Shown: positions 1 through 17,836 of the stretch, piece by piece
Position numbering within the stretch: position 1 is the stretch's first letter
How the letters are laid out: each line of letters opens with the position of its first letter
Assembly (NCBI GenBank): GCA_001483205.1
Contig: JPPB01000068.1
Location: 1 to 25,247 of the forward strand
Length of the DNA: 25,247 bases
From: an alpha proteobacterium 3107
Lineage (GTDB): Bacteria > Pseudomonadota > Alphaproteobacteria > Rhodobacterales > Rhodobacteraceae
Direction of reading: 5' to 3'
Program-made: the position numbers and the translations under genes
The notes under the pieces: generated by a model
What the model saw: only the letters and a program-made list of their open reading frames with translations
Database searches by the model: none
Told to the model about the DNA's origin: nothing

Positions 1-64
1 GATGCGCCGAAACATTCCTCGCCGCAGCACAGAGCGCCGCTATCGTCATATGGTATTTGTGAGT

Positions 65-382
65 CTACGCCCTAGAAATGTCTAGCCCATAACTGTCCAC
101 AAAAACGGGGGAACTCCAGACGTCTGCTCGGGCGTGGCGATAAGATGTGGCTGAAAGACGATGGCGTTTGGGTCGGAACAGGGCGGCGGTTTGATCATGG
201 ACTGACAAGAACCGCTGCGCTTGCCTGGAAGACTTCAGTCTGCCCATGATTTTTTCTCTTCGTTGCGTGTGTTTGTGCGAGGCCTCTGCGCGATTGTTCA
301 CCCCCTTGTGCTGACAGTGCTCAATCCCCGAGGTAATTTCCGCTTTCGCGGCACCGTAGGAGTGCAGCTTGTCGGTGATCAT
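65..382 (-). pseudogene. IS6-family transposase, 3' fragment
   Basis: The minus-strand reading frame encodes about 105 residues matching the C-terminal third of IS6-family (IS26/IS6100-type) DDE transposases. It opens with ITDKLHSYGAA, which carries the second catalytic Asp. GVNNRAEASH, with the catalytic Glu, follows at the expected D-34-E spacing. The family-typical tail REKIMGRLKSSRQAQRFLS and PKRHRLSATSYRHARAD comes after that. It ends at a TAG codon (65-67). The N-terminal half with the HTH and the first Asp is missing: the frame upstream of 382 reads AATPWG and has no family similarity. No typical IS6 terminal inverted repeat was seen in 1-64. The ATG at 382 is therefore not a true start, and the element is a dead remnant next to the defence genes. 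Confidence 0.85.
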
Positions 383-445
383 CCCCCATGGCGTCGCGGC
401 TGAAGTCTGCGCTACCGGGATGGCTGCTTCGGGAGCGTGATACGG
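383..445. other. short gap between IS6 remnant and helicase gene
   Basis: These 63 bases separate the transposase fragment from the helicase stop codon. No gene, hairpin terminator or inverted repeat was seen here. The truncation point of the insertion sequence probably lies within or near this stretch. Confidence 0.4.
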
Positions 446-3400
446 TCACGGCGACGACTTCGCAAGAAGTCCGCGCAACCAGTGGAGTGCGGGATGGCGA
501 TTAAACTGGTCCCAATGAACTTGGTTGGAATAGTCGTTCAGACAGCGCGAGCAGCTTGTCTCGCAATCTGAGTCACGCGGGCAATCAAGGACCGCGATTG
601 CTCGACTGAGCAGCACACGTGCCGAGAATTGAAGATCGTCAAGCAGCCGACGACAATAGCCAGCACCGCCCGGCACCGAGTCTGATAGGATCACAAGCGG
701 CACCGCACCTGGCAACTCTACGGTTGCACGCAAATCTCTTGGGTCAGTTTCAAGAATGTCAGCCGCCGCAAGCCTCAATGCCTCAGCCAGCGTTCTCAGG
801 AAGCCATCCCGAGCCGCCCGCCGATCTTTATCAGTTTCGCGATCAGAAAAGTCAGGGACCGATTGGTCGATGCGGATACCGCGCAGGTCTGTCTCGAAGA
901 CATGCGCCAGGTCAACGGGCCAACGGAGTGACTCGACCCGACATTGGTCGCCGGTCCGCGGGTTCTTATGCTTTTTCCGTATTTCGGCCCCTCCAAGCGC
1001 ATCCTGAGGTGCTGGTCGAGCATACTCGCAGGCCGAACACCAAAGATAACCCGCGCCCTGCGGCCCGCGGTTCAGGACAAGCATACGTCCGGGCTGACTC
1101 CCCTCCGGAGCAATCGCAGGCGCAAAGAAATGCGTGACGCGCGCGAGGTCCGAGCCCCGGAAATCCTCCGGCCGCGCTTTTGTGAGAAGGCGGGCTTCAT
1201 CGACAGGCCGAACACGCAAGCGAGATGCACCTGGGTCTCGGCCCTGTCGATCAGCATATGATGTCAGGAAACCGACAGGCTCAATGAATTTGCGGCCCCG
1301 ACCACTGACAGAGGCACCGCATTGAATGCAGTTTTCCCCAAAATCATCCCGGTCGTGGTGTCTTTCCGCATGTTGGCAGGCCGGACAGATACGGTAAAAT
1401 CCCTTTTCCATCCAAGCGTCTTCAGTGCCCACTATGGCCCTGCGTGTTATACCAGCCGATGTCCATATGCGGCCACCGGCCACCACCTCTGCTCCCGGCG
1501 CGTATTCTGCAACCGCCATCGCTGCATCCCGGTCAAGTTGAAGGGCACGCTCATCAGAAACACCATGCGGGCCGCGCTCGGTCACGATTTCCAGATGAAT
1601 CGAGTGAACCGGGAAGCTGTAGGTCGGAATGACGGCCTCACGCGACAATGTTTCCACCAGGAAGCGGTCAAGATAACGTTTCATATCGCCCTGCCGGGCA
1701 CTCATGCGGCGGGTAGCGCGCATACGCGCCTGCTCATTTGCCCCCGAATCATCAAGCGCAGCACGAGCCTTTTCGTAAGCGTCATTCAATTCACGCCAGC
1801 GAGCGCACGTAGCCCTGATCCAGCGCGTAATCTCTGCGCGGGTATGCTCAGTCAGTTCCCCCGCGGCGAGGCCGACATGATCAAGTCTTGCTGGCAGAGT
1901 AGCTACCATGTCTTCGGCAACCGCGTGTGTGGCAATTCCGGCGTCTGAGGCGAGCCATGCTGAAAGGTCTGTCAGTAATGCGCCCTCGGTTGTCCTGTCC
2001 AAGCGCTCTTCCAGCACATCGCGCAGGCGCGGAGCGCCTGTGCGCTCGTGGCCTGCAAGGCGACGATCAAGCCAGCCTGCAAGCAGGCATGAAACCTGAT
2101 GCCGCCGGAAGAAACTTGGGTTGTCCAACGTCAGGTAGGGGGCTGGCGGCAATGCCTCAAGGTAACCGCGCAAATCGTTGAACTTTGCCTGATCATACCT
2201 GCCGGACCTGGCCATCATCAACGCAACGGGCGCGGCCTGAGCGCGGCGACCGGCCCGGCCCGCGCGCTGTTGATAATTCGCGATCCCCGGTGGGACATTC
2301 CGGCAAAAAACCGCTTCAAGCTCACCCAGATCGACACCCATTTCCATCGTCGTGGTGCAACTGAGCAGATTGATTTCCCCCTGCCGGAACCGCTCTTCGG
2401 TCTCGGAGCGCTCTGTAATCGAAATGGCAGCGGTGTGCTCCCGTGCGATCCCGCTGAGCGGTTGTCTTTCATAACGGACGATGTAGTGATTTCGCTGGTG
2501 CATCTCGGTCCGTTCCCTGGCCGATACGGGAACGGTGCGCCCGGTACAGCGCCAGGCCGTGCAGACGCCTCTAAGGTCGATCTGGCTGGACGCGCCACAG
2601 CTTTCGCAACGGCGCAATTCGCCTTCCGCAGTCGCAACGAACCTCATGGCGGCTAAGTTCAGCACATGACCATGGCCTACCTGCTTAAGCAGTTTATGTT
2701 GGGGCCGTATTGCTTCCTGCCAAAAATCATCCAGAATATCCCGCGCCTGTTTTTCCGGTATCCCGAGCCGGTCAACGAGCACCCAAAGGGGCCGGTTAAG
2801 GCGTCCCTGTTCGGAGAGCAGCGTTCGCAACCGGCGGCTTTTGTGTGTGCGGGTCAGCGACCAGGAAATATCGGCGGTTGCCTGCCGTTCTCCCCAAATA
2901 GATTCGTCGGTGAGGTCGATATTTTCCAGATCGTTGATGGCTCTCGATTGTCGGATGAGATCGAGGAGAAAGCGGACAAGTGCAGGCACAAGGCCCCGGT
3001 ATTCGGGCGCTACACTTTCCGTCAGCCGCTGCGCAATCCTGTCACTGCCTTCATATTGCACGGTGATCAGGCCGAGAGCCTCGAGTGACACCCGCAGCGG
3101 GCCCCCGCAGAGCTCTGCCGCGATTAGTGCCATCAGTCGGTCTTTCGCGGCGGTGCTGCTCAATGCTTCCGGGTTGCGTCGGTCATAGAGCCTGAAGCCG
3201 GAGCGTCGTAATGCCGTCCACACCCCATCGCGCAAACCCATCAGGTCCAGGGCTTCATCCGCTTCTTGGCGCAAAGCCTGCACCATCGACGCCCGCATCG
3301 CCTGATCGCGAGCCGTGCGTTCAAAGAACGGAGCAAAAAAAGCTGCATCCTGCCGATTGTCGGCGAATACCAGAAGATTGCGCCCCTGCATCGGCGCTTG

Positions 3401-5389
3401 GGATGATTTCCCCCGGGGCGGCGGCAGGGCCTCAAGCAATGTCTGCGCCATGACCGAAGCAAGAGCATCATCGCCGGGGTGGATCGGTGTGACCGGCTCA
3501 GCAAATCTTCCGCCCTTCGCGCCGCAGGAAAGGCACTTTCGGACATAGCTGCGCCGCTCTTCGGGGTCGTCACGCATCGGTGCAACGGCAAGCGAAAGGA
3601 CGCCGTCTTCGGGGCCGTCCGCCAGCTTGCCTGTGTCGGCGAAGAACTCGAAAAGCTGTTTGTCGCTGGTTTCGCTCTCGCCCTCGTCCGGGTCAATTTC
3701 CGTGGCTGCTTCACCCGCCCTTATCAATCTCAGGACACGCCGTTTTGCCCCCCGGCTGATCTCAGGTCGTGGATGAAGCATCCTCCCATCGTCCCAGCCT
3801 TCCACATAAGGCTCGCCACAGTTGCGGCAAACGAAAAGGGAATACGCAGGAGCGCCTGCTATATGCACGCCGTTGCGGGATAACCGTAAGTCAGACCAAT
3901 TCTCGGCATCGTTCGCAGATAGCCGCAGGGCCACACCCTCAACGCCCGAGGCCGCAAGGTGAAAACGCGCCGGGAGCAGCGGAAATGCGCCAGGCACAGA
4001 GGGCCGAGCCAGCACACCGAGCGAGATCAGCGCCGTTAAAGCCGTGCGCGATGTTTCTGCCGATTCCGATGGAAATACCCTCGCGGCCAGATCGGTGAAG
4101 GGGAGCGCGCACTCCCTGAGTGCGTCCGCCACGGCCCGAACCTCTGCAAGACCGGCCAGGCGAGCCATCAGCGCTTCACCGAACTGAAGCTGCGAATCCA
4201 GGATCAGCACTTTCAGGCCAACCTCGCGCATAGCCTCATTCCATTCCTCGGTCAGATAGCCTGCGTTGTCCGGCGCGAGGCATCCCTTTTTTCGTAACTT
4301 CGCCAGCACGCGCCCCGCTTTGGCCCAGTCGGACGCTAAAAGCGTTTTCGGTTCTTTCCCGTCGGTCAACGCGGAATGCAGTCGTCGTTTGGCGGTGATC
4401 ACTGCGTCGTCGCCGCCGGGGAAAGGCTCCCCGAACAGGTCTTCGGCAAAGCGCGCGAGTTCTTCACGCTTCGCCGGATTGAGACTTGCGGATGTCCCGA
4501 CACATCGTATCTGCCCTTGGGGTATGCCGAGCCGCGCTTTCAGCTTTCGCAGGAGGAAAGCGACTTCGATAGCTTGCGCGCCGGTATAGGTGTGGACTTC
4601 ATCAAGGACGAGCCACCGGACATCCGCCCCGGCCAGCAATGCACGGTTGCGCGGCAAGAGCAGGATGTGCTCAAGCATCGCGTAGTTGGTGACCAGAATA
4701 TGCGGCGGGTTCTCCAGCATCTCGCCCCTGGCGAGAAGCCAATTTCTGGGGGCATGGCGCTCATCAGGGAAATCTGCCTGAAATGTTGGTGTCGTGGTCA
4801 GGCGCGCTTCTTCATTCGCTCTTGTTGCATCAGAACGCACCTGCCCGGTAAAGCGCCCGAGCGTGATACCAGGATCACCAAGATCCCGAAACAACAGCCG
4901 GGCGATGCGGTGCATCTGGTCGTTTGCGAGGGCGTTGAGCGGATAGACAAGGATCGCCCGAACGCCGGGCCGCCCCGGTTCCCCTTGATGCAGAAGGTCG
5001 TCGATCAGGGGGAAGAGAAAGGACTCCGTCTTACCGGAGCCGGTGCCGGTAGCGACGAGATAGCTTTCGTCGCGTCCGATGGCTGCAGACTGGTGCAGGT
5101 GAAGCCGTCTGCGCCACAGGGACCGCCCTTCTTCGCTTTCGGAAAGCGTCGACCAGGCACCGTGCAATGCGCCGTTAGCTACGAGTTCCTCAATGCTCTC
5201 GCCCTTCTCGAAGTCTGGCAAACTCTCGACGAACGGGCCGCGCACCAATTCCGATTGAGCGCACTTATCAGCCACGGCGCGAGAGAGCCGCGGTGCCCGT
5301 GCAGAAGAGACAGCGGCGGCTGTTGTGATATAGCGCGCCAGCGTTGCGCTGAGGTCGTCTCTGAATCGGATTGGGTCAAGGTCTGTCAT
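446..5389 (-). CDS. druE: DEVH-box helicase with C-terminal MZB/DUF1998 domain, probable Druantia DruE
   Basis: A 1647-residue superfamily 2 helicase. Seen directly: a Q-like segment (HLHQSAA, about 97-103), Walker A GTGSGKT (115-121), VLDEVH (261-266), GTSASL (298-303), NLLVFADNRQDAAFF (671-685), motif V CTTTMEMGVDLGELEAVF (1011-1028) and motif VI QQRAGRAGRR (1040-1049). Cys pairs that could bind zinc lie at 521/524, 619/622, 928/931, 943/948, 1335/1338, 1354/1357 and 1451/1454. The end carries a C-x5-C-x3-C-x2-C cluster (1603-1616), the hallmark of MZB/DUF1998. A helicase of this size with that C-terminus is the signature protein of Druantia phage-defence systems. The ATG start overlaps the upstream gene's TGA by 4 bases, so translation is coupled. 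The length is intact with no frameshift. The alternative is a DrmA/DrmB-like helicase from a DISARM-related system, but none of the DISARM methylase or PLD partners is present. Confidence 0.82.
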   Translation of the reverse strand: MTDLDPIRFRDDLSATLARYITTAAAVSSARAPRLSRAVADKCAQSELVRGPFVESLPDFEKGESIEELVANGALHGAWSTLSESEEGRSLWRRRLHLHQSAAIGRDESYLVATGTGSGKTESFLFPLIDDLLHQGEPGRPGVRAILVYPLNALANDQMHRIARLLFRDLGDPGITLGRFTGQVRSDATRANEEARLTTTPTFQADFPDERHAPRNWLLARGEMLENPPHILVTNYAMLEHILLLPRNRALLAGADVRWLVLDEVHTYTGAQAIEVAFLLRKLKARLGIPQGQIRCVGTSASLNPAKREELARFAEDLFGEPFPGGDDAVITAKRRLHSALTDGKEPKTLLASDWAKAGRVLAKLRKKGCLAPDNAGYLTEEWNEAMREVGLKVLILDSQLQFGEALMARLAGLAEVRAVADALRECALPFTDLAARVFPSESAETSRTALTALISLGVLARPSVPGAFPLLPARFHLAASGVEGVALRLSANDAENWSDLRLSRNGVHIAGAPAYSLFVCRNCGEPYVEGWDDGRMLHPRPEISRGAKRRVLRLIRAGEAATEIDPDEGESETSDKQLFEFFADTGKLADGPEDGVLSLAVAPMRDDPEERRSYVRKCLSCGAKGGRFAEPVTPIHPGDDALASVMAQTLLEALPPPRGKSSQAPMQGRNLLVFADNRQDAAFFAPFFERTARDQAMRASMVQALRQEADEALDLMGLRDGVWTALRRSGFRLYDRRNPEALSSTAAKDRLMALIAAELCGGPLRVSLEALGLITVQYEGSDRIAQRLTESVAPEYRGLVPALVRFLLDLIRQSRAINDLENIDLTDESIWGERQATADISWSLTRTHKSRRLRTLLSEQGRLNRPLWVLVDRLGIPEKQARDILDDFWQEAIRPQHKLLKQVGHGHVLNLAAMRFVATAEGELRRCESCGASSQIDLRGVCTAWRCTGRTVPVSARERTEMHQRNHYIVRYERQPLSGIAREHTAAISITERSETEERFRQGEINLLSCTTTMEMGVDLGELEAVFCRNVPPGIANYQQRAGRAGRRAQAAPVALMMARSGRYDQAKFNDLRGYLEALPPAPYLTLDNPSFFRRHQVSCLLAGWLDRRLAGHERTGAPRLRDVLEERLDRTTEGALLTDLSAWLASDAGIATHAVAEDMVATLPARLDHVGLAAGELTEHTRAEITRWIRATCARWRELNDAYEKARAALDDSGANEQARMRATRRMSARQGDMKRYLDRFLVETLSREAVIPTYSFPVHSIHLEIVTERGPHGVSDERALQLDRDAAMAVAEYAPGAEVVAGGRIWTSAGITRRAIVGTEDAWMEKGFYRICPACQHAERHHDRDDFGENCIQCGASVSGRGRKFIEPVGFLTSYADRQGRDPGASRLRVRPVDEARLLTKARPEDFRGSDLARVTHFFAPAIAPEGSQPGRMLVLNRGPQGAGYLWCSACEYARPAPQDALGGAEIRKKHKNPRTGDQCRVESLRWPVDLAHVFETDLRGIRIDQSVPDFSDRETDKDRRAARDGFLRTLAEALRLAAADILETDPRDLRATVELPGAVPLVILSDSVPGGAGYCRRLLDDLQFSARVLLSRAIAVLDCPRDSDCETSCSRCLNDYSNQVHWDQFNRHPALHWLRGLLAKSSP

Positions 5390-8300
5390 GGGCGTTCCTT
5401 GGCGATTTGCCAGAGCAGCAGGTGGAAGGCGAAAAGCTCCGGAGCGAGGCGTAGCATGAAGGCGATGCTGGTAAGAGCTTGCGCTGGCGACAGGTCAGCC
5501 CGTTGCGAAACGGTCTCCACGTAGTCGCTTACCTCATCGAAACGGCTCGCCTGGGCAAATCCCGAAAGAAGCGCCGATGCCCAAAGATCAATCCGATCTG
5601 GCTCATCCGCATCCTGACTCCGAAGGGGGGCTGGCGGTCGTAGTTTCTCGGGTGCGGAAATCCAGGCGGCCCTTATCAGCCGATGTAGGGCCTGCTGGCG
5701 ATGGCTGTATGGTCCTTCTTCCGCAGTGTCCTCGACGAAGAGACCGGCGGCGCCGAATCGCTCAGCAAGGCGCTGATGCGCCGCGCGCCAGTGATCAGGC
5801 CCCAGCAACGGCGTTCCACGCCAGAACCAGCCCGCTGATGGATCGCTATCAACGATTGGCAGGTTTTTGAAGAAGCGTGCCGGATCAAAACCCTCCAGCC
5901 GTGCATCGCTATCCCGTGCGGAATGCAGGTTACGGAAAGCAAGGCAGACAGTCGGGTGGAGATGCGACAACTCGCGCAGGCGCTCCGTGTTGAGCATGGC
6001 GAGTGCAGCCATCTCGGCAATGCCCGGATCAGCAGAGGCCGCCAGCGAAGCGAAAGCCCGCGGAGGAGCTGCGTAAAGGTTTGGAAGGAATTGCAGAGGG
6101 TGCAGGATCGGCACCCAGTCGGGTGCCGCATGGTCGGGCGGCGGCAGGCAAGCCGCTCGCATCAAGACCCCCTCTCCACCGGGCAAATGTCGCAACCGTT
6201 GACCAAGTTCCTGCCAGCGTGGAACCAGCGCGCACTCAAGCGTTGGCCAGCACTCTGCCGCATAGCAGTCGGAAAGCCAGCGACACAGAGTCTCAAACCG
6301 CCTTGAAAGTTCCTCGTTGCGCACAAGCCCCTCTGCTGCCGGATTTGGATTGGTAAAGGCTATCGCGAAACTGTCGCCCCGCGCATTGCGCAAAGGTCGC
6401 CAGCCGTCGCGCCCCTCCGGACGAACGAACAACCGAGCCAAGCGGGAGTCCCCATCCAGCCAATCGGCATTAAGGGTCAGTTCGATCCCATGCGCATCGT
6501 CTTTGCAGACCTCGGCATGAAACCAATCCGGGCACCGCGTCGCAACCGGCCTAAACCGCAGTGCGGCTTCTGCAAAGACGGCCTTCCCTGTTTCATCCTC
6601 GACCTCGACGGCCACCGCATCCACCGCTTCGCCGAAACAGAGCCTCAACCGAACCGCGTTGCGGGCCGGAAGAAGATTGATTTTTTGGGGGACAAGTGCC
6701 GCAACCAGCTCAAACAACAGGACTTCCATGCCGTTGCCGCGCCGAAGCAAGACACGTTCATCGGATGCAGGCACCAGCAGGTCGCGAACCGCGAGACTGC
6801 GGGTCAGCCCCCCGAAAAAGGGACGCGCCTCACGCCTTCCGCAGATGATCAGTTGGGCTTTCTGGTCAGGGCATCGGATACTTATCGTATCGAAGCGATC
6901 ATCATCGCCAACTGAGAGGCGAGCACCAAGCCGAAGTGACGACATACTGCCTTCCGCACGGCGGCGGGTTACCGTGACATTGGGCCACGGGAGATCAAAG
7001 GGAACGTGCTCATCTTCGATTTTGAAGATGGCGCGCGCCACGGTATATCCTCCGCCGGGGTCAAGGCAGAGCTGCCCCTGATCGTCACGCCCGACATGTA
7101 AGCATTCGTCCTCAACCAGATTGCGGACTGGCCGTTCACTATGAAACTCGTTTCCGTCAAGTCTACAAAATGCGGGCCATATCCATGCCGAAAGCCCAAT
7201 GCCGGAACGATGGACATCATTGCCACCTACACTCGGTGCCATCAATTCCACCCGAAGGCGTAAAGGATCGGCAGCCTCAACCTCTGCAAAGCCCGCAAGG
7301 AGCTTGTCCACCCCGACTTCGCCGAACCCGTCTTCGGAAATTGGTGCCTTAACCAGCCGCGACTGTTGCCCGAGGGTTATCCGGAGCACCCGCGTCTCGG
7401 AATGGCCCAATCCAGTTTCGATCCGAAGGCGTGCGGAACGTCCGTGAAGCATACCCCGTGGGCCACTCGCGATTTCGGCACCCGCCAGCGAAAGGTGCCT
7501 TCGTGGACGTGCCTTGAGAACTGTTTGAACACCGCCGAGGTTGAGCACCACAGGGCGGGGCCTAAGCACCGCAAAGCCAACATAACTATCGGCTTCTGGT
7601 TCAAGAGCTGGCTCGCCTGCGAGTGAGAACGGCTTACGCGCCAAAATCGCTATATCCGTCGAGTCCAGTTCTGTATCAGCTATGCCCTGCGGGATTTCAC
7701 GCAGGTAATGGCCGGTTATCTTGTCGAACACGGCACATTCCCCGTGCGCGAAGAGCTTGAGTTGACCGGTCTGACCAGCGATTTCCCATCGGACTTCCCG
7801 CGGCCAGGGCTGGGGCAGTGTCCAATCTTCACCACCACGCAACCGCAGCGGCCGCTGTGTTTCGTCGAGCCAGAGCCGAATACGCCCTTCACTGCGCGGC
7901 AATCGCAGCACAAGCCCGCCGGACTGCCAGAAAAGCCGTGGGCGGGGGGCAGGAGACTCGTGACCACCTCTGCCCGGTGCCGGGTGCGGTTCCTGCAAAC
8001 GTCGGTCAAACGCATCCTTGAAGTGCTTCTCAAACTCGATAACCGGGACGAAGGCCTCCGGGTTCTCGCGGATGCGGGCGAACAGGGCTGCGTGCCAGGC
8101 CGTTTCATCCCACAGGATCGGTCGGCGAAGCACATTAATTGCCGGTGGAAGAAAATACAGGGAATCGTCTTCCCAATGGTTTAACAGCACTGTCGTCTCG
8201 ATAGGCGGTGGACCAAAGGCCGCTTCCTGCCTCAAGAATGCGTCGATCAGGTGTGGAAGCTGTGCCTGGCTTACGCCCGCGTGCAGAAGGTAGACATCTA

Positions 8301-8718
8301 CCTGGCGCTCGAACCCCTGGGTAGGCAACCCAAACCTGTCGCACACGTTGCAAAATGAGTTAAACAGCACTTTGCGCTGCTGCGGGGTTTTCAGCGGAAC
8401 GCGAAGAGTTTCAGCGATATGCGGATATACCGCATGGCTGGCATCTCCATATCCTTTGCTCAGAGAATGGGTGACGAGCCATGCCGCAAGACTTGGAAAC
8501 CGGCGAAACAGTGCCGGGAGCTTATCCGTCTGTCCGTCCAGAAACTGCCGTGTGCGTTCAATGGCTTGTTCACGCGCGGCCTCGTCCAACGGGATAAGGC
8601 CGATGAAGGGGGGTGCCCGTGCTTCCTGGCGACCCCTGTTGATTAAATTGTCTGCGATTATGCAGGCATTGTCAGGTTGTGTTGGGCTGTCAGCAAAGTT
8701 TGGCGGCGTTGCATTCAT
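5386..8718 (-). CDS. druH: large protein of unknown fold, probable Druantia type III DruH
   Basis: A 1110-residue protein if translation starts at the ATG at 8718. The frame can be extended to a TTG at 8787, but the ATG has a purine stretch (AGAGCTCACAGC) just ahead of it and the TTG has no Shine-Dalgarno, so the ATG is preferred. I recognise no enzymatic motif, signal peptide or membrane span. By eye there are three parts: a helical N-terminal part (to about 240, with LFNSFCNVCDRFGLP), a long beta-strand-rich middle (about 260-760, many alternating hydrophobic/charged strands with Arg, Trp and Gly), and a helical, Leu/Ala/Arg-rich C-terminus (about 800-1110). The identification as DruH is inferred from the neighbour: a 1000-plus-residue orphan immediately upstream of and overlapping a DUF1998 helicase is the two-gene type III Druantia layout. 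Function in defence is known only at system level; its biochemical role is unknown. Confidence 0.7.
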   Translation of the reverse strand: MNATPPNFADSPTQPDNACIIADNLINRGRQEARAPPFIGLIPLDEAAREQAIERTRQFLDGQTDKLPALFRRFPSLAAWLVTHSLSKGYGDASHAVYPHIAETLRVPLKTPQQRKVLFNSFCNVCDRFGLPTQGFERQVDVYLLHAGVSQAQLPHLIDAFLRQEAAFGPPPIETTVLLNHWEDDSLYFLPPAINVLRRPILWDETAWHAALFARIRENPEAFVPVIEFEKHFKDAFDRRLQEPHPAPGRGGHESPAPRPRLFWQSGGLVLRLPRSEGRIRLWLDETQRPLRLRGGEDWTLPQPWPREVRWEIAGQTGQLKLFAHGECAVFDKITGHYLREIPQGIADTELDSTDIAILARKPFSLAGEPALEPEADSYVGFAVLRPRPVVLNLGGVQTVLKARPRRHLSLAGAEIASGPRGMLHGRSARLRIETGLGHSETRVLRITLGQQSRLVKAPISEDGFGEVGVDKLLAGFAEVEAADPLRLRVELMAPSVGGNDVHRSGIGLSAWIWPAFCRLDGNEFHSERPVRNLVEDECLHVGRDDQGQLCLDPGGGYTVARAIFKIEDEHVPFDLPWPNVTVTRRRAEGSMSSLRLGARLSVGDDDRFDTISIRCPDQKAQLIICGRREARPFFGGLTRSLAVRDLLVPASDERVLLRRGNGMEVLLFELVAALVPQKINLLPARNAVRLRLCFGEAVDAVAVEVEDETGKAVFAEAALRFRPVATRCPDWFHAEVCKDDAHGIELTLNADWLDGDSRLARLFVRPEGRDGWRPLRNARGDSFAIAFTNPNPAAEGLVRNEELSRRFETLCRWLSDCYAAECWPTLECALVPRWQELGQRLRHLPGGEGVLMRAACLPPPDHAAPDWVPILHPLQFLPNLYAAPPRAFASLAASADPGIAEMAALAMLNTERLRELSHLHPTVCLAFRNLHSARDSDARLEGFDPARFFKNLPIVDSDPSAGWFWRGTPLLGPDHWRAAHQRLAERFGAAGLFVEDTAEEGPYSHRQQALHRLIRAAWISAPEKLRPPAPLRSQDADEPDRIDLWASALLSGFAQASRFDEVSDYVETVSQRADLSPAQALTSIAFMLRLAPELFAFHLLLWQIAKERP

Positions 8719-9474: not shown

Positions 9475-9488
9475 CTTGGTTGACCAAG
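9475..9488. promoter_or_regulatory. candidate GntR-family operator upstream of dctP
   Basis: The 14-base palindrome CTTGGT-TG-ACCAAG sits 66 bases before the dctP start codon. The form TTGGTnnACCAA matches the UxuR/ExuR type of operator used by GntR (FadR-subfamily) regulators, which commonly control TRAP transporter operons. No regulator gene lies in the window, so assignment rests on the site alone. Confidence 0.45.
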
Positions 9489-9553
9489 CCGTGGCCGTTG
9501 ATTCCGTGTGGCTTGGCCCGGGCCAGACATTGGGAACCCATAGGCCGGAGAAT

Positions 9554-10600
9554 ATGCGTGTAATACGGGGACTTTCTGGTGCCGTGGCGATGGTCATGTT
9601 CGTCACGGGGCTGCTTTGTTCGCTTCCGAATCGTGCTGAAGCGGAACAGATCACCCTTCGGCTGCACCATTTCAACTCGCCCAAGGCAATCGCCCACCGG
9701 CTGTTCTTGCAGCCTTGGGCAGACGAGATTGAGGAAAAGTCTGAGGGCCGGGTCAAGATACAGGTGTTTCCGGCCATGCAGCTTGGCGGCAGACCAGCGG
9801 ATCTCTATGGCCAGGCGCGCGACGGCGTGGTTGACATCGTTTGGACGATACCCGGCTATACGCCGGGACGGTTTCCCCTGACGGAAATGTTTGAGTTACC
9901 CTTCCTGTCCGGCAGCGCGTTGGCGGCAAGCCAGGCACTGACGGAGTTCCATCAGAATTGGCTGAGGGAAGAATACCAGGATACTCACCCGCTGGTCTTT
10001 CACAGCACTGCACCGACCCACCTCCACACGGCCGGGAAACAGATCAGCGTACTCGAAGACTTCGCAGGGGTGAAGATACGCGCGCCATCGCGGATCAGCG
10101 CGGAAACGCTACGTGCGTTGGGTGCCGTCCCGGTCGGTATGCCGGTACCCGCCGTCTACGAGGCCCTGTCCCGGGGCGTGGTTGAAGGAACCGCGATCCC
10201 TTGGACCATAATGCGTCCCTTCCGCCTGCATGAGGTCACGAAGTTCCATACCGAAGTCTCTCTTTCCCGCGTCTTGTTCGTGATGACGATGAACAAGCGG
10301 CGCTATGACGAACTGCCGCCGGACATCAAGGCCATCATTGACGACAGCACTGGGATGGCGTTGGCCGAACGACTCGGCCGGATGTGGGACGATGACGAGA
10401 AGCCAGGCCGGGCGATTGCGGTCGAGCGAGGCCAGCCGGTCCTGTCGCTGTCAGAAGCGGAGCGGGAACGCTGGCAGGAAAGAACCCGGACTGTCATTGA
10501 CGGCTGGATCGAGAAGGTGGGTGCCCTGGGGCACGACGGGCAGGCGCTGCTTGCCGACGCAACGCGCCTGCTGGCCAAGCACGGCTCCGACCAGAAATAG
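9554..10600 (+). CDS. dctP: TRAP transporter substrate-binding protein, DctP family
   Basis: A 348-residue periplasmic binding protein. The ATG at 9554 is preceded by GGAG (9547-9550) and begins a clear signal peptide (basic MRVIRG, hydrophobic core VAMVMFVTGLLC, likely cleavage after AEA at residue 30). A longer frame from TTG 9476 would put extra residues before the signal and is rejected. The mature chain shows DctP/TAXI-type hallmarks: FNSPKAIAHRLFLQPWADEI, VQIFP-like strand KIQVFPAMQLGG, and GVKIRAPSR, whose Arg normally pairs with the carboxylate of an organic-acid ligand. It is followed after 10 bases by the small and large membrane subunits, giving a complete tripartite TRAP system. 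The substrate cannot be read from the sequence; a carboxylate is likely. Confidence 0.93.
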   Translation: MRVIRGLSGAVAMVMFVTGLLCSLPNRAEAEQITLRLHHFNSPKAIAHRLFLQPWADEIEEKSEGRVKIQVFPAMQLGGRPADLYGQARDGVVDIVWTIPGYTPGRFPLTEMFELPFLSGSALAASQALTEFHQNWLREEYQDTHPLVFHSTAPTHLHTAGKQISVLEDFAGVKIRAPSRISAETLRALGAVPVGMPVPAVYEALSRGVVEGTAIPWTIMRPFRLHEVTKFHTEVSLSRVLFVMTMNKRRYDELPPDIKAIIDDSTGMALAERLGRMWDDDEKPGRAIAVERGQPVLSLSEAERERWQERTRTVIDGWIEKVGALGHDGQALLADATRLLAKHGSDQK

Positions 10601-10610
10601 TGGGGAGCGG

Positions 10611-11150
10611 GTGACGGACTGCGATGAGAGAGGCCAGTCTCACGAAAGCGTTCCGTATTGGGCGAAACGCGGTCTTGGTTTCGTCTGCTGGCGTCTGGCC
10701 AGAGTGTTCGCGATAGCTGGCGGCATTCTCATGGTAGGAATCGTTGCGATGACCGGGACCAGCATCCTTGGCCGCTACCTCTTCAATGCGCCGATACCCG
10801 GCGATTACGAGATCACCGAGATTGCCTGCGGTGTGGCCGTATTCGCCTTCTTTCCCTACTGCTACATGAAGAACGCCAACATCCTCGTCGAGTTCTTCAC
10901 CGGACGGATGCGTCAGCGTCACCGGGCGGCCTTGGATACGGCGCACAATCTCGTCTTTGCGGTCGTCGCGGCACTGATCACCTGGCGTCTCTTCGTCGGA
11001 GGGATTCACAAGCTCGAAGACGGCGAGACAACGCTGTTTCTGGGCATTCCGGTTTGGTTGGGCTATTTCTCCGCGCTGCCAGCAGCGGCATTGCTGACCG
11101 CCGTCTGCGTCTGGGGCCTCTGCTTCCGTTTGCGCACGCTAGGCAAATGA
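10611..11150 (+). CDS. dctQ: TRAP transporter small permease, DctQ family
   Basis: A 179-residue inner-membrane protein with four hydrophobic segments (around AIAGGILMVGIVAMTG, IACGVAVFAFFPYCYM, NLVFAVVAALITW and WLGYFSALPAAALLTAVCVW), the normal DctQ topology. The motif GRYLFNAPIPGDYEITE after the first helix is characteristic of the family. The start is the GTG at 10611, 10 bases after the dctP stop and just behind a GGGGAG ribosome-binding site (10602-10607) with unusually short spacing. No ATG lies in frame until well inside the first helix. The TGA overlaps the ATG of dctM (ATGA), so the two membrane subunits are translationally coupled. Confidence 0.9.
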   Translation: MTDCDERGQSHESVPYWAKRGLGFVCWRLARVFAIAGGILMVGIVAMTGTSILGRYLFNAPIPGDYEITEIACGVAVFAFFPYCYMKNANILVEFFTGRMRQRHRAALDTAHNLVFAVVAALITWRLFVGGIHKLEDGETTLFLGIPVWLGYFSALPAAALLTAVCVWGLCFRLRTLGK

Positions 11151-12463
11151 CCAATATTGCGTTCGGTGGGCTCCTGTTTGGCGTGTGCCTGATACTGATC
11201 GCCCTTCGGATGCCAGTCGCGATCGCCATGTTCACGGTCGGCAGCATCGGTTTCGCGTCGCTCGCAGGATGGGAAGCGTTTCTTGGCCTGCTAAACACCG
11301 GACCCTTCGGCCGGGCTTCGGGCTACACTCTCTCTGTCTTGCCGCTGTTCCTGCTTATGGGCCAGTTCGCCATCCGTGCGGGGTTGGGCCGTTCGCTGTT
11401 CAACTCGGCGCGTGCCTGGGTGGGGCACCACCGCGGTGGGCTGGCCATCTCGACCGTTTGCGGATGTGCCGCGTTCGGCTCCATCTGCGGGTCGTCGATC
11501 GCGACCGCGGCGACCATGGCGTCAGTGGCCTTACCAGAGATGCGGCGCTGCGGCTACTCCGGTGCGCTGATCACCGGCTCGCTGGCTGCTGGCGGCACTC
11601 TGGGAATCCTGATCCCTCCCTCGTTGGTTCTGGTGATCTACGCGATCATCACCGAGCAATCGATCGGAAAGCTGTTCTTCGCCGCACTGATCCCAAGCGT
11701 CATTGCGACCCTCGGCTATTCCGCCGCGGTCGGCATTTATGTCCGGTTCAATCCTGCGTCGGCTCCGGTTGTTCCGGCCGTGCCTTTCCGCGAGCGGCTG
11801 CGCAGCTTGTGCCCGGTGTTGCCTGTCGCCGCGATCTTTCTGCTGGTCATAGGCGGCATTTATCTTGGCGTGTTCACCCCGACCGAAGGTGCGGCGATCG
11901 GGGCTGCGGCCACGTTCCTGATAGCGTTCGTGTCCGGACGGCTGAACTGGGCGGGCTTTGTCTCGAGCGTGCTTGAGACCGCGCAGGTAACCGCAGCGAT
12001 CTTCCTTATCCTGATCGGGGCCGAGATCTACAACGGGTTTCTCGCGTTGTCTCAGATTCCGGTTGAGCTGGCTAACGCATTCGCAGAATCGGGACTGGCA
12101 CCAATGTCAATCCTGATTGGCGTCCTGCTCGTCTATCTGATCCTCGGCTGCGTCATGGACACCCTTGCCATGATCCTGCTTACGGTACCGGTTTTCTTTC
12201 CCCTGGTTACGAGCCTTGAATTCGACCTCACTGAGGAAGAGGTCGCCATCTGGTTCGGGATCCTGACCCTAATCGTCGTCGAGGTCGGGCTGATCACCCC
12301 GCCGATAGGCCTCAACGTCTACGTGATCAACGCCCTGGCCGACGAGGTGCCGCTCGGCGAATCGTTCAGAGGCACCTTGCCGTTTTTGATAAGCGATTTT
12401 GTCCGCATCGCGATCATTCTGGCCGTGCCCGCGACTTGCCTCTGGCTTCCGGGGCTGCTCTGA
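11147..12463 (+). CDS. dctM: TRAP transporter large permease, DctM family
   Basis: A 438-residue, strongly hydrophobic protein with about 12 membrane segments, the usual DctM length. It is the Na+- or H+-coupled translocation channel that works with DctQ and the DctP-bound substrate. Family-typical stretches include the N-terminal LRMPVAIAMFTVGSIGF, SVLPLFLLMGQFAIRAGL, GSICGSSIATAATMA, and GGTLGILIPPSLVLVIYA (the conserved Gly/Pro re-entrant-loop region), with ITPPIGLNVYVINALA near the end. The ATG at 11147 overlaps the dctQ stop. Upstream in-frame sequence is only the shadow of dctQ. Nothing is truncated. Confidence 0.95.
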   Translation: MTNIAFGGLLFGVCLILIALRMPVAIAMFTVGSIGFASLAGWEAFLGLLNTGPFGRASGYTLSVLPLFLLMGQFAIRAGLGRSLFNSARAWVGHHRGGLAISTVCGCAAFGSICGSSIATAATMASVALPEMRRCGYSGALITGSLAAGGTLGILIPPSLVLVIYAIITEQSIGKLFFAALIPSVIATLGYSAAVGIYVRFNPASAPVVPAVPFRERLRSLCPVLPVAAIFLLVIGGIYLGVFTPTEGAAIGAAATFLIAFVSGRLNWAGFVSSVLETAQVTAAIFLILIGAEIYNGFLALSQIPVELANAFAESGLAPMSILIGVLLVYLILGCVMDTLAMILLTVPVFFPLVTSLEFDLTEEEVAIWFGILTLIVVEVGLITPPIGLNVYVINALADEVPLGESFRGTLPFLISDFVRIAIILAVPATCLWLPGLL

Positions 12464-12580
12464 TGCCACATCTGCGGATGCATTTCCTGACAAGACCGGG
12501 AGCCACCGCCCGCGACTTTCGCTCTCGCAGATGCCTTGCAGGGTGGTCAATTCGAAGTCTTTCAGAGTGGTGCTGAAAAC

Positions 12581-14347
12581 ATGAGTGCTGAAACGTCAAG
12601 TGCCAATGCTGATCCTGGTCGCCATCCCGAAGAGAAGGTTCCGCCGATGCTCGCCGCTGGCCTCGGACTGCAAATGGCGGGCCTGGCTGTGCCCGGAACA
12701 GTGCTGATTCCGACGGTCGTCTTCCGGACCGCGGATCAGGCCGAACCGCTCCTGCTTTGGGCGGTATCCGCGTCTGTCATAATCTGCGGTGTGGTCACGA
12801 TCCTACAGGCGATTCGGGTCGGCCGGGTAGGTGCCGGTCACATACTCGTGACAGGAACGTCCGGAGCCGCCATAGCGGTCAGTGTCGCGGCACTGGCCGA
12901 GGGCGGCCCGGCATTACTGGCCGTCCTTATGCTCGTCCTGTCTCTCTTTCAGTTCGCGTTCTCGGCACGGCTCTCGCTGTTTCGGCAAATTCTGACGCCG
13001 ACCGTCATGGGAACGATCATCATGCTGACCCCGGTTACGGTTATGCCGGTCATCTTCGATCAGTTGGAGAACGTGCCAGCGGGATCTCCGCCATCGGCGG
13101 CTCCGTTGAGCACGCTCGCGACCCTTCTCGTCATCGCTGTCATTGTTCTGAAGGCGAAAGGCCCGTTGCGCCTCTGGGCACCGGTAGCTGGCATCGTTGC
13201 CGGTTCATTGGTCGCCAGCGCTTTCGGCCTGTACGACATCGACCGTATCGCCAAGGCATCGTGGGTTGGTCTTCCGAGGTCTCAATGGCCGGGTCTTGAT
13301 CTCGACTTCGGACCCGCGTTCTGGGGCCTTCTGCCGACATTCCTGTTCATATCTGTCGTATGCACGATTCAGACGATCAGTGGCTCAATCGCAGTCCAGC
13401 GCGTCGCGTGGTCCGCGCCCCGGGCGGCTGACTTCCGAACGACGCAAGGCGCGGTGGCCGCAGACGGAACAGGCAATCTGCTGTCTGGCCTCGCGGGAAC
13501 GATGCCGATCGGTTTCCGTCCGACGGGCACGTCGATGATCGAACTCACTGGAATCAGCTCCCGCCGTGTCGGGGTCGCCTACGGGGCAATAGTCGTCTCG
13601 CTGGCATTCCTTCCCAAGGCGCTCGCCGTGATCCTGGCAATTCCGGGCCCTGTGGTTGCTGCGTTTATTACCGTGACGATGGCGTCCATCTTCGTGATCG
13701 GCATGAAAATAGTCGTCCAGGACGGAATCGACTATCGGAAGGGCATGATTGCGGGAGTCGCGTTCTGGGTCGGCGTCGGCTTCCAGAACGGCGTCGTGTT
13801 TCCGGAATACGTAACGGCGCTCGCAGGCCCTCATCTACAGAATGGAATGGTGGCTGGCGGGCTTGTGGTCATTGTTATGACCCTGTTCACGGAGCTGACG
13901 AAACCAAGTCGCCGCCGGGTCGAGGTGGCGCTGAACGTCTCGGCGCTGAAGGACATCAGGGCCTTTCTTGCCGCGTTCGCGTCCAGCAGTGGCTGGGACA
14001 CGGCGATGTCGGATCGCCTTGATGCGGCAGCCGAGGAGACTTTGTTGTCACTCGTGCGGCAGGACGAAGCCGAAGGGGAACTTGAGCCACGCCGCTTGCT
14101 CCTGACGGCGCGCAAGGAGGATGGCGGCGCGATTCTGGAATTTGTCGCCTTGACGGGCAGCGGAAACCTACAGGACCGGCTTGCGCTGCTCGGCGAACGG
14201 GTAGAGGAAGACCTGATCGGACGGGAAGTCTCGCTCAGGCTTTTGCGACACCTCGCGTCCTGGGTTCGCCACCAGCAGTATCAGGAGACCGATATTGTGA
14301 CGATCCGCGTGGACGTGCCTGACGGCAATTCCCGCAGACGGACATGA
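12581..14347 (+). CDS. NCS2-family (xanthine/uracil-type) permease with extra C-terminal domain
   Basis: A 588-residue membrane protein. The ATG at 12581 is chosen over an upstream TTG (12536); neither has a strong Shine-Dalgarno. Residues 20-440 contain about 12-14 hydrophobic segments of the nucleobase/ascorbate transporter fold. The best family match is GNLLSGLAGTMPIGF (298-312) followed by ELTGISSRRVGVAYG (321-335), which aligns with the conserved 'G-LLSGLFGG-P ... ALTGVASR' core of NCS2 carriers, although the classic N-x-G-x4-T signature is altered. Residues 445-580 are a soluble extension (VEVALNVSALKDIRAFLAAF, then DAAAEETLLSLV, and a final strand DIVTIRVDV) that resembles RsbW-type HATPase domains without the canonical Asn of the N-box. 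It lies 117 bases after dctM and may be co-transcribed. The substrate is unknown. Confidence 0.8.
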   Translation: MSAETSSANADPGRHPEEKVPPMLAAGLGLQMAGLAVPGTVLIPTVVFRTADQAEPLLLWAVSASVIICGVVTILQAIRVGRVGAGHILVTGTSGAAIAVSVAALAEGGPALLAVLMLVLSLFQFAFSARLSLFRQILTPTVMGTIIMLTPVTVMPVIFDQLENVPAGSPPSAAPLSTLATLLVIAVIVLKAKGPLRLWAPVAGIVAGSLVASAFGLYDIDRIAKASWVGLPRSQWPGLDLDFGPAFWGLLPTFLFISVVCTIQTISGSIAVQRVAWSAPRAADFRTTQGAVAADGTGNLLSGLAGTMPIGFRPTGTSMIELTGISSRRVGVAYGAIVVSLAFLPKALAVILAIPGPVVAAFITVTMASIFVIGMKIVVQDGIDYRKGMIAGVAFWVGVGFQNGVVFPEYVTALAGPHLQNGMVAGGLVVIVMTLFTELTKPSRRRVEVALNVSALKDIRAFLAAFASSSGWDTAMSDRLDAAAEETLLSLVRQDEAEGELEPRRLLLTARKEDGGAILEFVALTGSGNLQDRLALLGERVEEDLIGREVSLRLLRHLASWVRHQQYQETDIVTIRVDVPDGNSRRRT

Positions 14348-14448
14348 GGGTGGAACCCGCCTGTCCTTTTGACGTTCCCCGCTTAGGCGACCTGTTTCGC
14401 GTCCCATGCGAGGTATGAAGGTCGGGGTCGACTCCGGCTGGGTGCAGA
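14348..14448. other. gap between NCS2 permease and IS630 remnant
   Basis: About 100 bases with no recognisable gene. No clear rho-independent terminator follows the permease stop. Similarity to IS630 transposases starts only at 14449, so the 5' break of that remnant is here. Confidence 0.35.
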
Positions 14449-14571
14449 TTCAAAGCTGAAGACCTGTTGCACAAGGCTGAGAAGCGCACCGTCGAAGAGC
14501 TGTGGGACGCCATCGGTCGCCTGATCGACACCATCACATCGAAAGAAAGTGCAAACTTCTTCGAACCCTGA
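14449..14571 (+). pseudogene. IS630-family transposase, C-terminal tail remnant
   Basis: Too short for an ordinary gene call. The plus frame reads FKAEDLLHKAEKRTVEELWD, then AIGRLIDTITSKESANFFEP and TGA (14569-14571). This is the familiar end of IS630-family DDE transposases (family form roughly F-KLK-LLRKAAERT-E-LW-AIGRLLD-FTP-ECANFF). Upstream residues (TPAGCR) no longer match, so everything before the last 40 codons is lost, including all three catalytic acidic residues. A repeat end begins five bases after the stop, suggesting that the repeat family invaded or was carried by this element. Confidence 0.8.
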
Positions 14572-14575
14572 TTCC

Positions 14576-14607
14576 AAGACCTCTGCATAAGGATATATCG
14601 CCCCCCA
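14576..14607 (+). repeat. isolated end of the AGACCTCTGCATAA repeat family
   Basis: AAGACCTCTGCATAAGG (14576-14592) followed by ATATATCGCCCCCC matches the left end near 21929 (CCTCTGCATAAGG, then CTATAGCCCCCC). It is also the exact reverse complement of the right end at 22313-22327 over 15 bases. Only one end is present here; no partner end was seen nearby. Confidence 0.7.
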
Positions 14608-14626
14608 ATACCCCCCCGAACAGTGA

Positions 14627-14650
14627 ACGGGGCGGGATAACCCGCCCCGT
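14627..14650 (-). terminator. terminator-like hairpin after the BCCT gene
   Basis: ACGGGGCGGG (14627-14636), loop ATAA, CCCGCCCCGT (14641-14650): a perfect 10-bp stem with a 4-base loop, 25 bases beyond the BCCT stop. The run of T expected after the stem on the minus strand is poor (TCACTGTT), so termination may be incomplete. Confidence 0.6.
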
Positions 14651-14674
14651 CCTGTCTCTGACCGGTCCTTCCCC

Positions 14675-16276
14675 TCAGCGGTTCAGGAATTCCAGTTCAT
14701 ACTTGTCTTCCACATCCGGTGCCGGATGATCCTCATGCAGCGCCTTGATGATGCCATAGATCATCAGCAGCAGAATGACCGCGATCGGCAGACCGGCAAC
14801 GATCGACGCGGTTTGCAGCGCGCCCAACCCCCCGGCCAGCATCAGAACGCCCGCAACGACGCCCGAGGTCACCCCCCAGAAGATGCGGAACTTCACCGGC
14901 GGGTGCTCATCACCCATCGACAGCATGGTGCACATCACCAGCGTACCGGAATCGGACGAGGTGACAAACCACGAGATCAGCAGGATCGTGATCAGCACGG
15001 TCAGCGGATAGACGATCCAGCCGTAACCGAACCCGGCCACGGTCTGATAAACGCCCGAGGCGTAATCGTTGTTCACCGCATCGACGACGCCTGCGTTGTA
15101 GAACAGGTCAACGCCCGCCGCTGCGCCACCGAAAATGCCCATCCACAGCATCACCACCGAGGTCGGGATCAGCAGCACGCAGAAGCAGAACTGACGGATC
15201 GTGCGGCCTTTGGACACCCGTGCGATGAACAGGCCGACGAACGGACACCAGGCAATCCACCATCCCCAGTAAAAGATGGTCCACCAGCTTTGCCACTGGT
15301 TATCCGGCTCGCCATTGATCCAGAAGCCCATCGGGATCACGTTCCACAGGTAATCGCCAAAGCCCGAGATGGTCACGCCAAGCACAAAGGCCGTCGGCGC
15401 AAGGATCAGGAACAGAATCAGCAGCGCAAGGCTGGCCATCACGTTGATCTCGCTGAGGATCCGCACGCCCTTGCCGACGCCGGACGCGGCCGAGGCCGTC
15501 CCCATGGCGGTGATGATGGCAACCAGCACCAGTTGTCTGCCCTGGGTGTTTTCCATCCAGCCCAGTTCCTCCAGCCCGGCGGCAATCGGCGTCACGCCCA
15601 GGCCCAGCGAAGTCGCCAGACCAAAGATGGTGCCGAACACGCCGATCAGGTCAATCAGGTGCCCCCACGGGCCATAGATGCGTTCCTTCAGCACCGGATA
15701 GAGCGCCGTGCGCAGGGTCAGCGGCAAATCACGCCGGTAGGCGAAATAGGCCAGGCACAGGCCAACCAGCACATACAGGCCCCAACCGTGGAACCCCCAG
15801 TGAAAGATCGTCGTGCTGACGGCAGAGACCGCGGCATCAACGCTGCCCGGCTCTATCCCGTTCTGTTCGATGAACGGGGTGCCCTGGATATGATACATGG
15901 GTTCGGCCACGCCCCAGTAGATCAGCCCCGATCCCAGCCCGGCGCTGAACAGCATACATATCCACGAGAAGGTCGAGAAATCCGGTTCCTCATCCGGCTT
16001 GCCCAGCTTGACATCGCCGAACCGGCTGACCAGCAGCCAGAACACGAAGAACAGCGCGATGTTCACCACCACGACATAGAACCAGTCCATGCTGCCGATG
16101 ATGAAGTTTTTCCCCGCCGAGAAAACCTCGCCGGACCTTTCCACATCCGAGATGGTAAAGGCGACGAATCCGAGGATCATCACCATAGAGGCAATGCCCA
16201 TCAGCTTGTTCATACCGGCGAATAGGCCCGATTTATCGACCAGGTTTTCCGGCCTGTTGGTTGTTTGATCACTCAT
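14675..16276 (-). CDS. BCCT-family (betaine/carnitine/choline-type) transporter
   Basis: A 533-residue inner-membrane carrier with 12 predicted helices. The ATG at 16276 has the ribosome-binding site AGAGGAA about 9 bases upstream; a longer frame from GTG 16333 would overlap the preceding gene. Family marks: WGVAEPMYHIQGTPF (121-135), FHWGFHGWGLYVLVG (158-172), and the Trp-rich signature WWTIFYWGWWIAWCPFVG (331-348) followed by LFIARVSKGRTIRQF. The substrate-site glycine motif reads AGLGSG (112-117) rather than the usual G-M/I-GIG of betaine carriers, so the ligand may differ from glycine betaine. BCCT carriers move quaternary ammonium compounds and relatives (betaine, choline, carnitine, DMSP, TMAO). 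It follows a binding-protein gene by 34 bases in one operon. Confidence 0.93.
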   Translation of the reverse strand: MSDQTTNRPENLVDKSGLFAGMNKLMGIASMVMILGFVAFTISDVERSGEVFSAGKNFIIGSMDWFYVVVVNIALFFVFWLLVSRFGDVKLGKPDEEPDFSTFSWICMLFSAGLGSGLIYWGVAEPMYHIQGTPFIEQNGIEPGSVDAAVSAVSTTIFHWGFHGWGLYVLVGLCLAYFAYRRDLPLTLRTALYPVLKERIYGPWGHLIDLIGVFGTIFGLATSLGLGVTPIAAGLEELGWMENTQGRQLVLVAIITAMGTASAASGVGKGVRILSEINVMASLALLILFLILAPTAFVLGVTISGFGDYLWNVIPMGFWINGEPDNQWQSWWTIFYWGWWIAWCPFVGLFIARVSKGRTIRQFCFCVLLIPTSVVMLWMGIFGGAAAGVDLFYNAGVVDAVNNDYASGVYQTVAGFGYGWIVYPLTVLITILLISWFVTSSDSGTLVMCTMLSMGDEHPPVKFRIFWGVTSGVVAGVLMLAGGLGALQTASIVAGLPIAVILLLMIYGIIKALHEDHPAPDVEDKYELEFLNR

Positions 16277-16310
16277 TTCATTTATTCCTCTTGATCCTGT
16301 TGCGCTTGCC

Positions 16311-17471: not shown

Positions 17472-17779
17472 CTATATCCTCCCTTGATGGGCAAAGCGCC
17501 CCTGTATTGCTGACACAATCGGCTATCGCTTACTGCGCCCCGATTCCTTCGGGCCAGCCCCGCCGATCCGCGTTTTCCGGCAACCTAATGTCACCTGACG
17601 GTCATATGGCGGTGCTAAGATCGGCATTTGGCCGATGACCCTGAGTCCATCATCAGCCCAAAATGCCGTTCAAGGCAATAAAATACGACATTCTGTCCGA
17701 AAAAATCGACATTACGGCATTTTGAGGGCGTTTTGCCTGTCGCCCGGTAGCCGGTTTTCCCGCTTTTGCGGTCCCCCGC
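17472..17779. promoter_or_regulatory. upstream region of the binding protein-BCCT operon, with inverted repeats
   Basis: A gene-free stretch, more A+T-rich at 17640-17725. It holds an 11-base perfect inverted repeat, CAAAATGCCGT (17659-17669) and ACGGCATTTTG (17714-17724), 44 bases apart, plus a smaller palindrome TCGGC-ATTTG-GCCGA (17621-17635). The half-site GGCATTT therefore appears three times, which would suit a repressor or activator of the operon starting at 17471. No confident -35/-10 pair was found. Confidence 0.4.
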
Positions 17780-17819
17780 GAAAACGCCCCGGCGCGGCAC
17801 TGCACTCCGGGGCGTTTTC
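17780..17819 (-). terminator. rho-independent terminator of ctaD
   Basis: GAAAACGCCCCGG (17780-17792) and CCGGGGCGTTTTC (17807-17819) form a perfect 13-bp stem with a 14-base loop, beginning 17 bases after the ctaD stop. On the minus strand the stem ends in GCGTTTTC, so the T-run is partly inside the stem, and it could act in both directions. Confidence 0.8.
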
Positions 17820-17836
17820 TGTCTCTGCCACCCGGA

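What the first reader, a model, noticed from the sequence alone, without database searches (positions are those of the whole stretch)
446..8718. Probable type III Druantia anti-phage system in a Rhodobacteraceae-like genome
Two giant overlapping genes stand alone: an orphan 1110-residue protein and a 1647-residue DEVH helicase ending in an MZB/DUF1998 Cys cluster. Motifs and ATGA coupling are seen directly. The DruH-DruE layout is known from the Druantia family. The assignment of the upstream gene is inferred from context only. The genes look intact, so the system may be active.
Basis: partly seen in the sequence, partly recalled or inferred. Interest (0 to 1): 0.85.

Follow-up and report, generated by a model that had tools for sequence, protein, structure and literature searches.

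The report
Diverged Druantia phage-defence pair, partly eroded
Two overlapping giant genes form a branch of a known bacterial anti-phage system whose likely sensor protein has drifted so far that standard detection models miss it, and this particular copy has lost pieces at both ends.

Summary
On the minus strand an 1110-aa gene (UP, 5386-8718) and a 1647-aa helicase gene (446-5389) overlap by ATGA. The helicase is a Druantia DruE (PADLOC, 587 bits). UP matches no PADLOC DruH model and no solved DruH, while DruH controls do. Yet UP has the DruH layout in an AlphaFold model, precedes DruE in 10 of 10 named loci, and its first ~200 residues align with DruH above 78 of 78 null windows one way and 75 of 78 the other, with 80% secondary-structure agreement. 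Best reading: Druantia type III-like, with a very diverged DruH-like sensor, on a helicase branch apart from DruH-linked DruE; perhaps Bell et al.'s 'III-B', which I could not test. 'Intact' is not supported: 11 of 12 helicases at 84-86% identity are 1973-1982 aa; the window copy has a TGA at 446-448, loses the tail at base 391 to an IS6 remnant, and lacks the relatives' start codon and adjoining XRE gene. New variant of a known kind; moderate interest.

The parts
5386..8718 (-). UP: 1110-aa DruH-like partner gene (part conserved with relatives: 5386-8664)
   Evidence: ORF; 105 homologs; AlphaFold model; no DruH HMM hit, controls; 5' limit of similarity
446..5389 (-). DruE-like YprA-family helicase, 1647 aa, C-terminally truncated
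5386..5389 (-). ATGA overlap of UP stop and DruE start
391..445 (-). remnant of the lost helicase tail, in frame after the TGA stop (446-448)
121..391 (-). IS6-family transposase remnant (C-terminal half) fused to the helicase remnant
   Evidence: Pfam; NCBIfam 45.9 bits, below its cut-off of 125; blastn matches spanning 121-391; ORF 65-382
1..75 (.). end of a dispersed repeat at the contig edge; six other copies at 89-97% in the same assembly
8665..8718 (-). 5' extension of UP (18 codons) not matched in the relatives compared; shared by a 99% identical protein

Best explanation
A two-gene Druantia type III-like anti-phage module. UP is a strongly diverged DruH-type sensor: an all-helical N-terminal domain, a chain of Ig-like beta domains that would bind a phage component, and a helical C-terminal domain. 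On infection it would license DruE, a YprA-family superfamily 2 helicase that loads on single-stranded 3' ends of phage replication intermediates, stalls replication and, in tailed members, perhaps processes DNA through its conserved C-terminal domain. Shown here: gene pair, conservation, helicase family, predicted layout. Inferred: sensing, licensing, substrate and anti-phage action, all by analogy with E. coli and M. smegmatis type III. The window copy lost the tail and its original 5' flank; if expressed it would be a helicase-only version like the nuclease-less M. smegmatis DruE, or it may be a recently disabled copy.
For: DruE identity. ATGA overlap in 13 of 13 relatives printed. UP model pLDDT 87, helices 16-242, beta 261-788, helices 801-1108; DruH model helices 2-243, beta 255-802, helices 816-1079. 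N-terminal profile score 26.4, above all 78 nulls; secondary structure agrees at 129 of 161 aligned positions, 0 of 230 shifts reach this. Some of 107 flanking ORFs of relatives hit AbiL, McrBC, restriction enzyme, AriA and transposase models. Low dN/dS on both genes. DruH/DruE mechanism: PMC13192584, sections read; PMC13316683, sections read.
Against: No HMM links UP to DruH; full-length profile comparison gives probability 1.8% and 0.4%. The reciprocal N-terminal test is weaker: score 23.2, 3 of 78 nulls higher. Outside the N-terminal domain the profiles give little support: the C-terminal hit is out of register and the broad beta-region hit is not significant. The DruH model has a 15-residue helix (690-704) inside the beta region that the UP model lacks. 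The helicase branch is separate from DruH-linked DruE. I found no test of this branch in print. The window copy is damaged at both ends and lies beside transporter genes, not in a defence island.
Confidence: 0.65

Rival explanations
1. UP is not a DruH homolog but an unrelated protein of similar build, so this is a new Druantia type (another kind of DruE partner) with its own trigger.
For: No hit to PADLOC DruH models; none of 105 UP homologs has a precomputed Pfam domain while 58 of 59 DruH homologs have PF27205; non-significant full-length profile comparison; own helicase branch.
Against: Same helix-beta-helix order and similar lengths, N-terminal profile score above all nulls one way, 80% secondary-structure agreement.
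Confidence: 0.22
2. The window copy is a dead relic: the truncation and loss of start and regulator inactivated it. (Compatible with the best explanation for the family.)
For: TGA, tail loss at 391 with IS6 scar, lost XRE gene and start codon; 4 of 7 named relatives with the whole helicase in view are also interrupted.
Against: 8.2 kb of open frames with dN/dS of 0.04-0.10 on the window branch; the stop lies close to where 15 of the 18 short-tailed homologs end, 1632-1646 aa; a 99% identical UP with the same new N-terminus exists elsewhere.
Confidence: 0.45
3. A DNA-repair helicase of the MrfA/YprA kind with an accessory protein, not defence.
For: The MZB domain is named after MrfA.
Against: DruE models score 301-588 bits, the next best model 92; YprA itself is a weak match (61 bits); patchy distribution, 12 of 198 same-family genomes; defence-type genes near some relatives.
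Confidence: 0.05

Closest known systems
Druantia type III (DruH-DruE), E. coli
   Same: Two genes, DruH-like then DruE, helicase core with MZB cluster; same broad domain layout of the partner; partner diverges faster than helicase (here; for E. coli).
   Different: UP is not recognised by DruH HMMs; helicase is on a separate branch; the tail of relatives was not shown to be a PLD pair, and the window copy has no tail.
Druantia type III of Mycolicibacterium smegmatis (MSMEG_1253/1254)
   Same: Sizes 1132 and 1667 aa against 1110 and 1647; overlapping genes; no canonical nuclease domain (paper).
   Different: Sequences could not be fetched, so relatedness is untested; overlap is 17 bp there and 4 here.
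Druantia type III-B branch of Bell et al. 2025 (PMC12458937)
   Same: A separate type III-like helicase branch in which a nuclease domain is most often absent.
   Different: Its representative GIH50614.1 was not available; membership untested.
Druantia type I (DruABCD-DruE1)
   Same: PADLOC's top single model for the helicase is DruE1.
   Different: The one type I locus read (L013) has DruA and three more genes upstream and its helicase lies elsewhere on the tree.
ARMADA and DISARM
   Same: YprA-family helicase.
   Different: Tree separates the two ARMADA-like helicases; helicase and MZB part are in one protein, unlike DISARM; DrmA scores only 46 bits.

Membership tests
Druantia (any type) | DruE helicase: DEAD, Helicase_C, MZB/DUF1998 in one chain, best match to DruE models | tested here: met
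Druantia type III | two-gene operon, partner directly upstream of DruE | tested here: met
   two distant relatives have a third gene downstream
Druantia type III | partner matched by a DruH profile | tested here: not met
   no PADLOC DruH model at E 0.1; three DruH controls hit 12, 10 and 9 DruH models, three distant UP relatives hit none; UP profile finds no PDB chain at E 1, DruH profile finds 9tud at 3.6e-90
Druantia type III | partner shares the DruH fold and remote homology | tested here: inconclusive
   layout and N-terminal profile similarity agree; reciprocal test exceeded by 3 of 78 nulls; no direct structure comparison; 9tud was not among the 50 rows shown even for the real DruH model, so the fold library probably lacks it
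Druantia type III | helicase groups with DruH-linked DruE | tested here: not met
   two separate clades, each SH-aLRT 100 (quick tree, long-branch warning given)
Druantia type III-A | PLD nuclease pair at the DruE C-terminus | tested here: not met
   window copy ends at 1647 aa before any tail; tail of relatives not shown to be PLD
Druantia type III-B (Bell et al.) | helicase falls in the branch of GIH50614.1 | not testable with these tools
   I found no way to fetch that sequence here
Druantia type I | DruA-DruD beside DruE | tested here: inconclusive
   PF14236 (DruA) finds nothing in the own genome but no control genome rang; the contig ends beside the helicase
DISARM | DrmA with separate DrmB | tested here: not met
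   MZB fused to helicase; DrmA 46 bits against DruE 587
ARMADA | helicase groups with ARMADA YprA homologs | tested here: not met
   with L014 and L064, which I judged ARMADA by their helicase and methylase neighbours

The most novel reading that the evidence does not exclude
This is a separate Druantia type whose sensor family is absent from the detection libraries tried here, and in which the conserved C-terminal domain of the helicase is a detachable module, lost or gained eight times at least in the sampled tree (four if the window and three doubtful single rows are left out) while the sensor-helicase pair persists; one sub-branch instead carries a third giant gene (about 2050 codons) directly after the helicase.
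Probability: 0.3. Interest if true: 0.65.

Novelty: new variant of a known kind. Interest (0 to 1): 0.48.

Why it matters
If right, a branch of Druantia-like systems, seen here mostly in Rhodobacteraceae, is mis-typed or half-missed by PADLOC-style detection, because the partner gene is invisible to its models and the helicase is called DruE1. Repeated loss of the helicase tail gives a natural experiment on whether Druantia needs its fused C-terminal domain at all, a question opened by the M. smegmatis system, which has no canonical nuclease domain.

Tried and rejected

Rows dropped: 8 of 119 helicase homologs lacked the motif I used to measure tails; 4 of 119 were skipped in the tail tree. 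Subsets given: 36 of 105 UP homologs in the profile and fold work, 31 of 59 DruH homologs, 23 of 119 helicases, 25 of 119. The null tests used all 105 and all 59. Short tails of P0117, P0137 and P0196 may be frameshifts or contig ends rather than real losses. The dN/dS figures use only codons where the reference rows agree and dS is near 0.7-1.0, so they lean low; the same count for the L002 branch gives 0.055 (UP) and 0.032 (DruE).

Full report
What is there. On the minus strand of the window an 1110-aa open frame (UP, 5386-8718) is followed, with an ATGA overlap, by a 1647-aa helicase (446-5389). The other genes that I scanned with Pfam are transporters and a cytochrome oxidase subunit, one without a match. 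No tRNA was found in the window and G+C of the two genes does not stand out. The contig begins at window base 1.

The helicase. Pfam finds DEAD, Helicase_C and MZB. PADLOC's seven best models are all DruE: DruE1 PDLC00013 587 bits, DruE3 PDLC00037 525, and so on, against DpdJ 92 and DrmA 46. The nearest solved structure by profile is a 2108-aa helicase, 9tu7, 333 bits; I take it to be a DruE, though its entry names it only DEAD/DEAH box helicase; entry 9tud is named DruH. In a 41-row quick tree (23 of the 119 listed homologs, 10 loci rows, 7 plasmid rows and the window) the window's helicase falls in a 28-row clade with SH-aLRT 100. That clade holds every row whose neighbour I had seen to be UP (window, L053, L055, L056, L058) and the 23 homologs, whose neighbours I did not see. 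It is apart from the seven DruH-linked DruE (100), from the type I DruE of a Pseudomonas plasmid with DruA and from two ARMADA-like helicases. The tool warned that some long branches meet.

The partner. UP has 105 homologs, none with a precomputed Pfam domain, called hypothetical where a source gives a protein name. It matches no PADLOC, PHROG or NCBIfam model at E 0.1, no Pfam model at 0.01, and no solved chain worth noting (one weak hit at E 0.32; none with the profile). Twelve PADLOC DruH models appear; three DruH controls taken from other genomes hit 12, 10 and 9 of them, three distant UP relatives hit none. DruH homologs carry PF27205 in 58 of 59. So by sequence families UP is not DruH.

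Still, the partner looks DruH-like. AlphaFold gave good models for UP (pLDDT 87.1, pTM 0.84) and for a DruH from a genome of the window's own family (87.3, 0.74). They have 12 and 13 helices in the first 245 residues, beta domains to about 790-800, and a helical end; the DruH model also has a helix at 690-704 that UP lacks. This is broadly the layout described for solved E. coli DruH, with Ig-like domains at 257-748 (PMC13192584, section read). Full-length profile comparison is not significant (1.8%, 0.4%). Restricted to residues 1-250, UP against DruH scores 26.4 over 161 columns in register, above all 78 null windows (highest 20.2). The reverse direction scores 23.2 over 163 columns; 3 of 78 nulls score higher, with at most 84 columns among the four printed. 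The beta and C-terminal regions give no significant or in-register match of their own apart from a short stretch (about 555-592 of UP with 597-638 of DruH, P 0.03, in a comparison whose limits I chose). Secondary structure, not used in the N-terminal alignment, agrees at 129 of 161 positions, and none of 230 circular shifts reaches that. I call this probable but unproven homology.

Conservation of the pair. UP lies directly before the helicase in 10 of 10 loci from named genomes. In 198 genomes of the family, 12 have a UP match, the window's own included; in 9 of these the helicase is beside it, one runs off the contig, one is a broken UP without a helicase in view, and one is a 52-residue match. 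UP diverges faster than its helicase (for example 78.5 against 86.0% and 46.6 against 62.2% identity), as reported for DruH. In a class-wide sample the UP profile is found in 2 of 385 genomes, one of them the window's. Among 107 flanking ORFs from 13 loci, one or two each hit AbiL, Type II and IV restriction, AriA, SoFic and IS66 models; metabolic families are there too (only the 25 commonest families shown).

The window copy is eroded. Of 111 measurable homologs, 93 carry 320-379 aa after the Cys cluster and 18 do not. The tail has invariant residues (HFHDR, R..D, GID) in 25 aligned sequences. Of the 12 homologs at 84-86% identity over the whole query, 11 are 1973-1982 aa and one 1685. In the window a TGA sits at 446-448, in-frame similarity continues to base 391, and there an IS6 transposase remnant takes over. 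Bases 1-75 are a repeat found at six other places of the assembly at 89-97%. At the other end similarity begins at base 8664, at the third codon of the relatives' gene; the codon in the place of their start is not a start codon. A 118-residue ORF of a divergent XRE-type gene stands upstream in L002-L006 (5 of 10 named loci; L011 begins inside UP and cannot tell) and in L059, L060, L062 and L075, of which L060 and L075 seem to be the genomes of L005 and L004; it is absent from the window and from L007-L010, L053, L055, L056, L058 and L061. The coding parts evolve under constraint: dN/dS on the window branch 0.06-0.10 for UP and 0.04-0.09 for the helicase, slightly above the L002 branch (0.055 and 0.032). 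A 99% identical UP with the same new N-terminus exists, on a contig of up to 2.5 Mb. So the 5' change is real, and the losses are either recent or tolerated.

Tail loss is recurrent. On a 120-row FastTree of the helicase part, tailed and tail-less states need at least 8 changes, also when only starred branches count. One of these is the window and three are single rows that may be frameshifts or contig ends. The window's stop falls close to where 15 of the 18 short-tailed homologs end (1632-1646 aa), so a helicase-only protein is plausible; the M. smegmatis pair, DruE of 1667 aa, protects without a canonical nuclease domain (PMC13316683, abstract, sections 2.1, 2.2 and Discussion).

Mechanism. 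By analogy: UP senses a phage component and licenses DruE, which engages 3' single-stranded DNA of phage replication intermediates and blocks replication. In E. coli DruH is the likely sensor and DruE a helicase-nuclease (PMC13192584, abstract, three Results sections and passages). None of this is shown for the present branch.

Known or new. Bell et al. (PMC12458937; abstract, three Results sections, figure legends and passages) name a separate type III-like branch, III-B in a legend, whose helicases most often lack a nuclease. The present system may be part of it. Its representative and the paper's supplements were out of reach. My searches with Druantia, DruH, DruE, MrfA, type III-B and Rhodobacter as terms (listings only, apart from the three papers named) showed no description of the UP family. 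I rate it a new variant of a known kind.

Noticed in passing
L055 from 11195 and L056 from 10607, continued in L087 689-6904 and L086 571-6717: In two Rhodobacteraceae-family genomes with a distant UP and a tail-less DruE, a third giant gene (2071 and 2048 codons stop to stop; 52% identical over about 1237 aa) follows the helicase; only a weak AAA_16 match near residues 1358-1494.
   Followed up: partly
L002 9538-9894 minus and the same place in L003-L006: A 118-residue ORF of a divergent XRE/HTH-type gene is conserved upstream of UP in the window's nearest relatives and absent in the window.
   Followed up: yes
L005, L006, L008, L011, L062: Helicase or UP genes of several relatives are interrupted by frameshifts or stops, as if the system were often inactivated; sequencing errors not excluded.
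   Followed up: no
L012 8908-10347: A Sinorhizobium medicae plasmid has a 479-aa protein resembling UP residues 37-369 (27.7%), near TIR and SIR2 genes and transposases, with no helicase in the (incomplete) gene table of that stretch.
   Followed up: no
L017 1995-5972 and 6049-11244: A Roseomonas plasmid pairs a 1325-aa protein without a PADLOC or clear Pfam match with a 1731-aa DruE; another possible undescribed DruE partner.
   Followed up: no
window 9476-19537: Solute-binding protein and DctM of a TRAP transporter, a permease, a BCCT transporter, another solute-binding protein and a COX1-type oxidase gene; ordinary.
   Followed up: no
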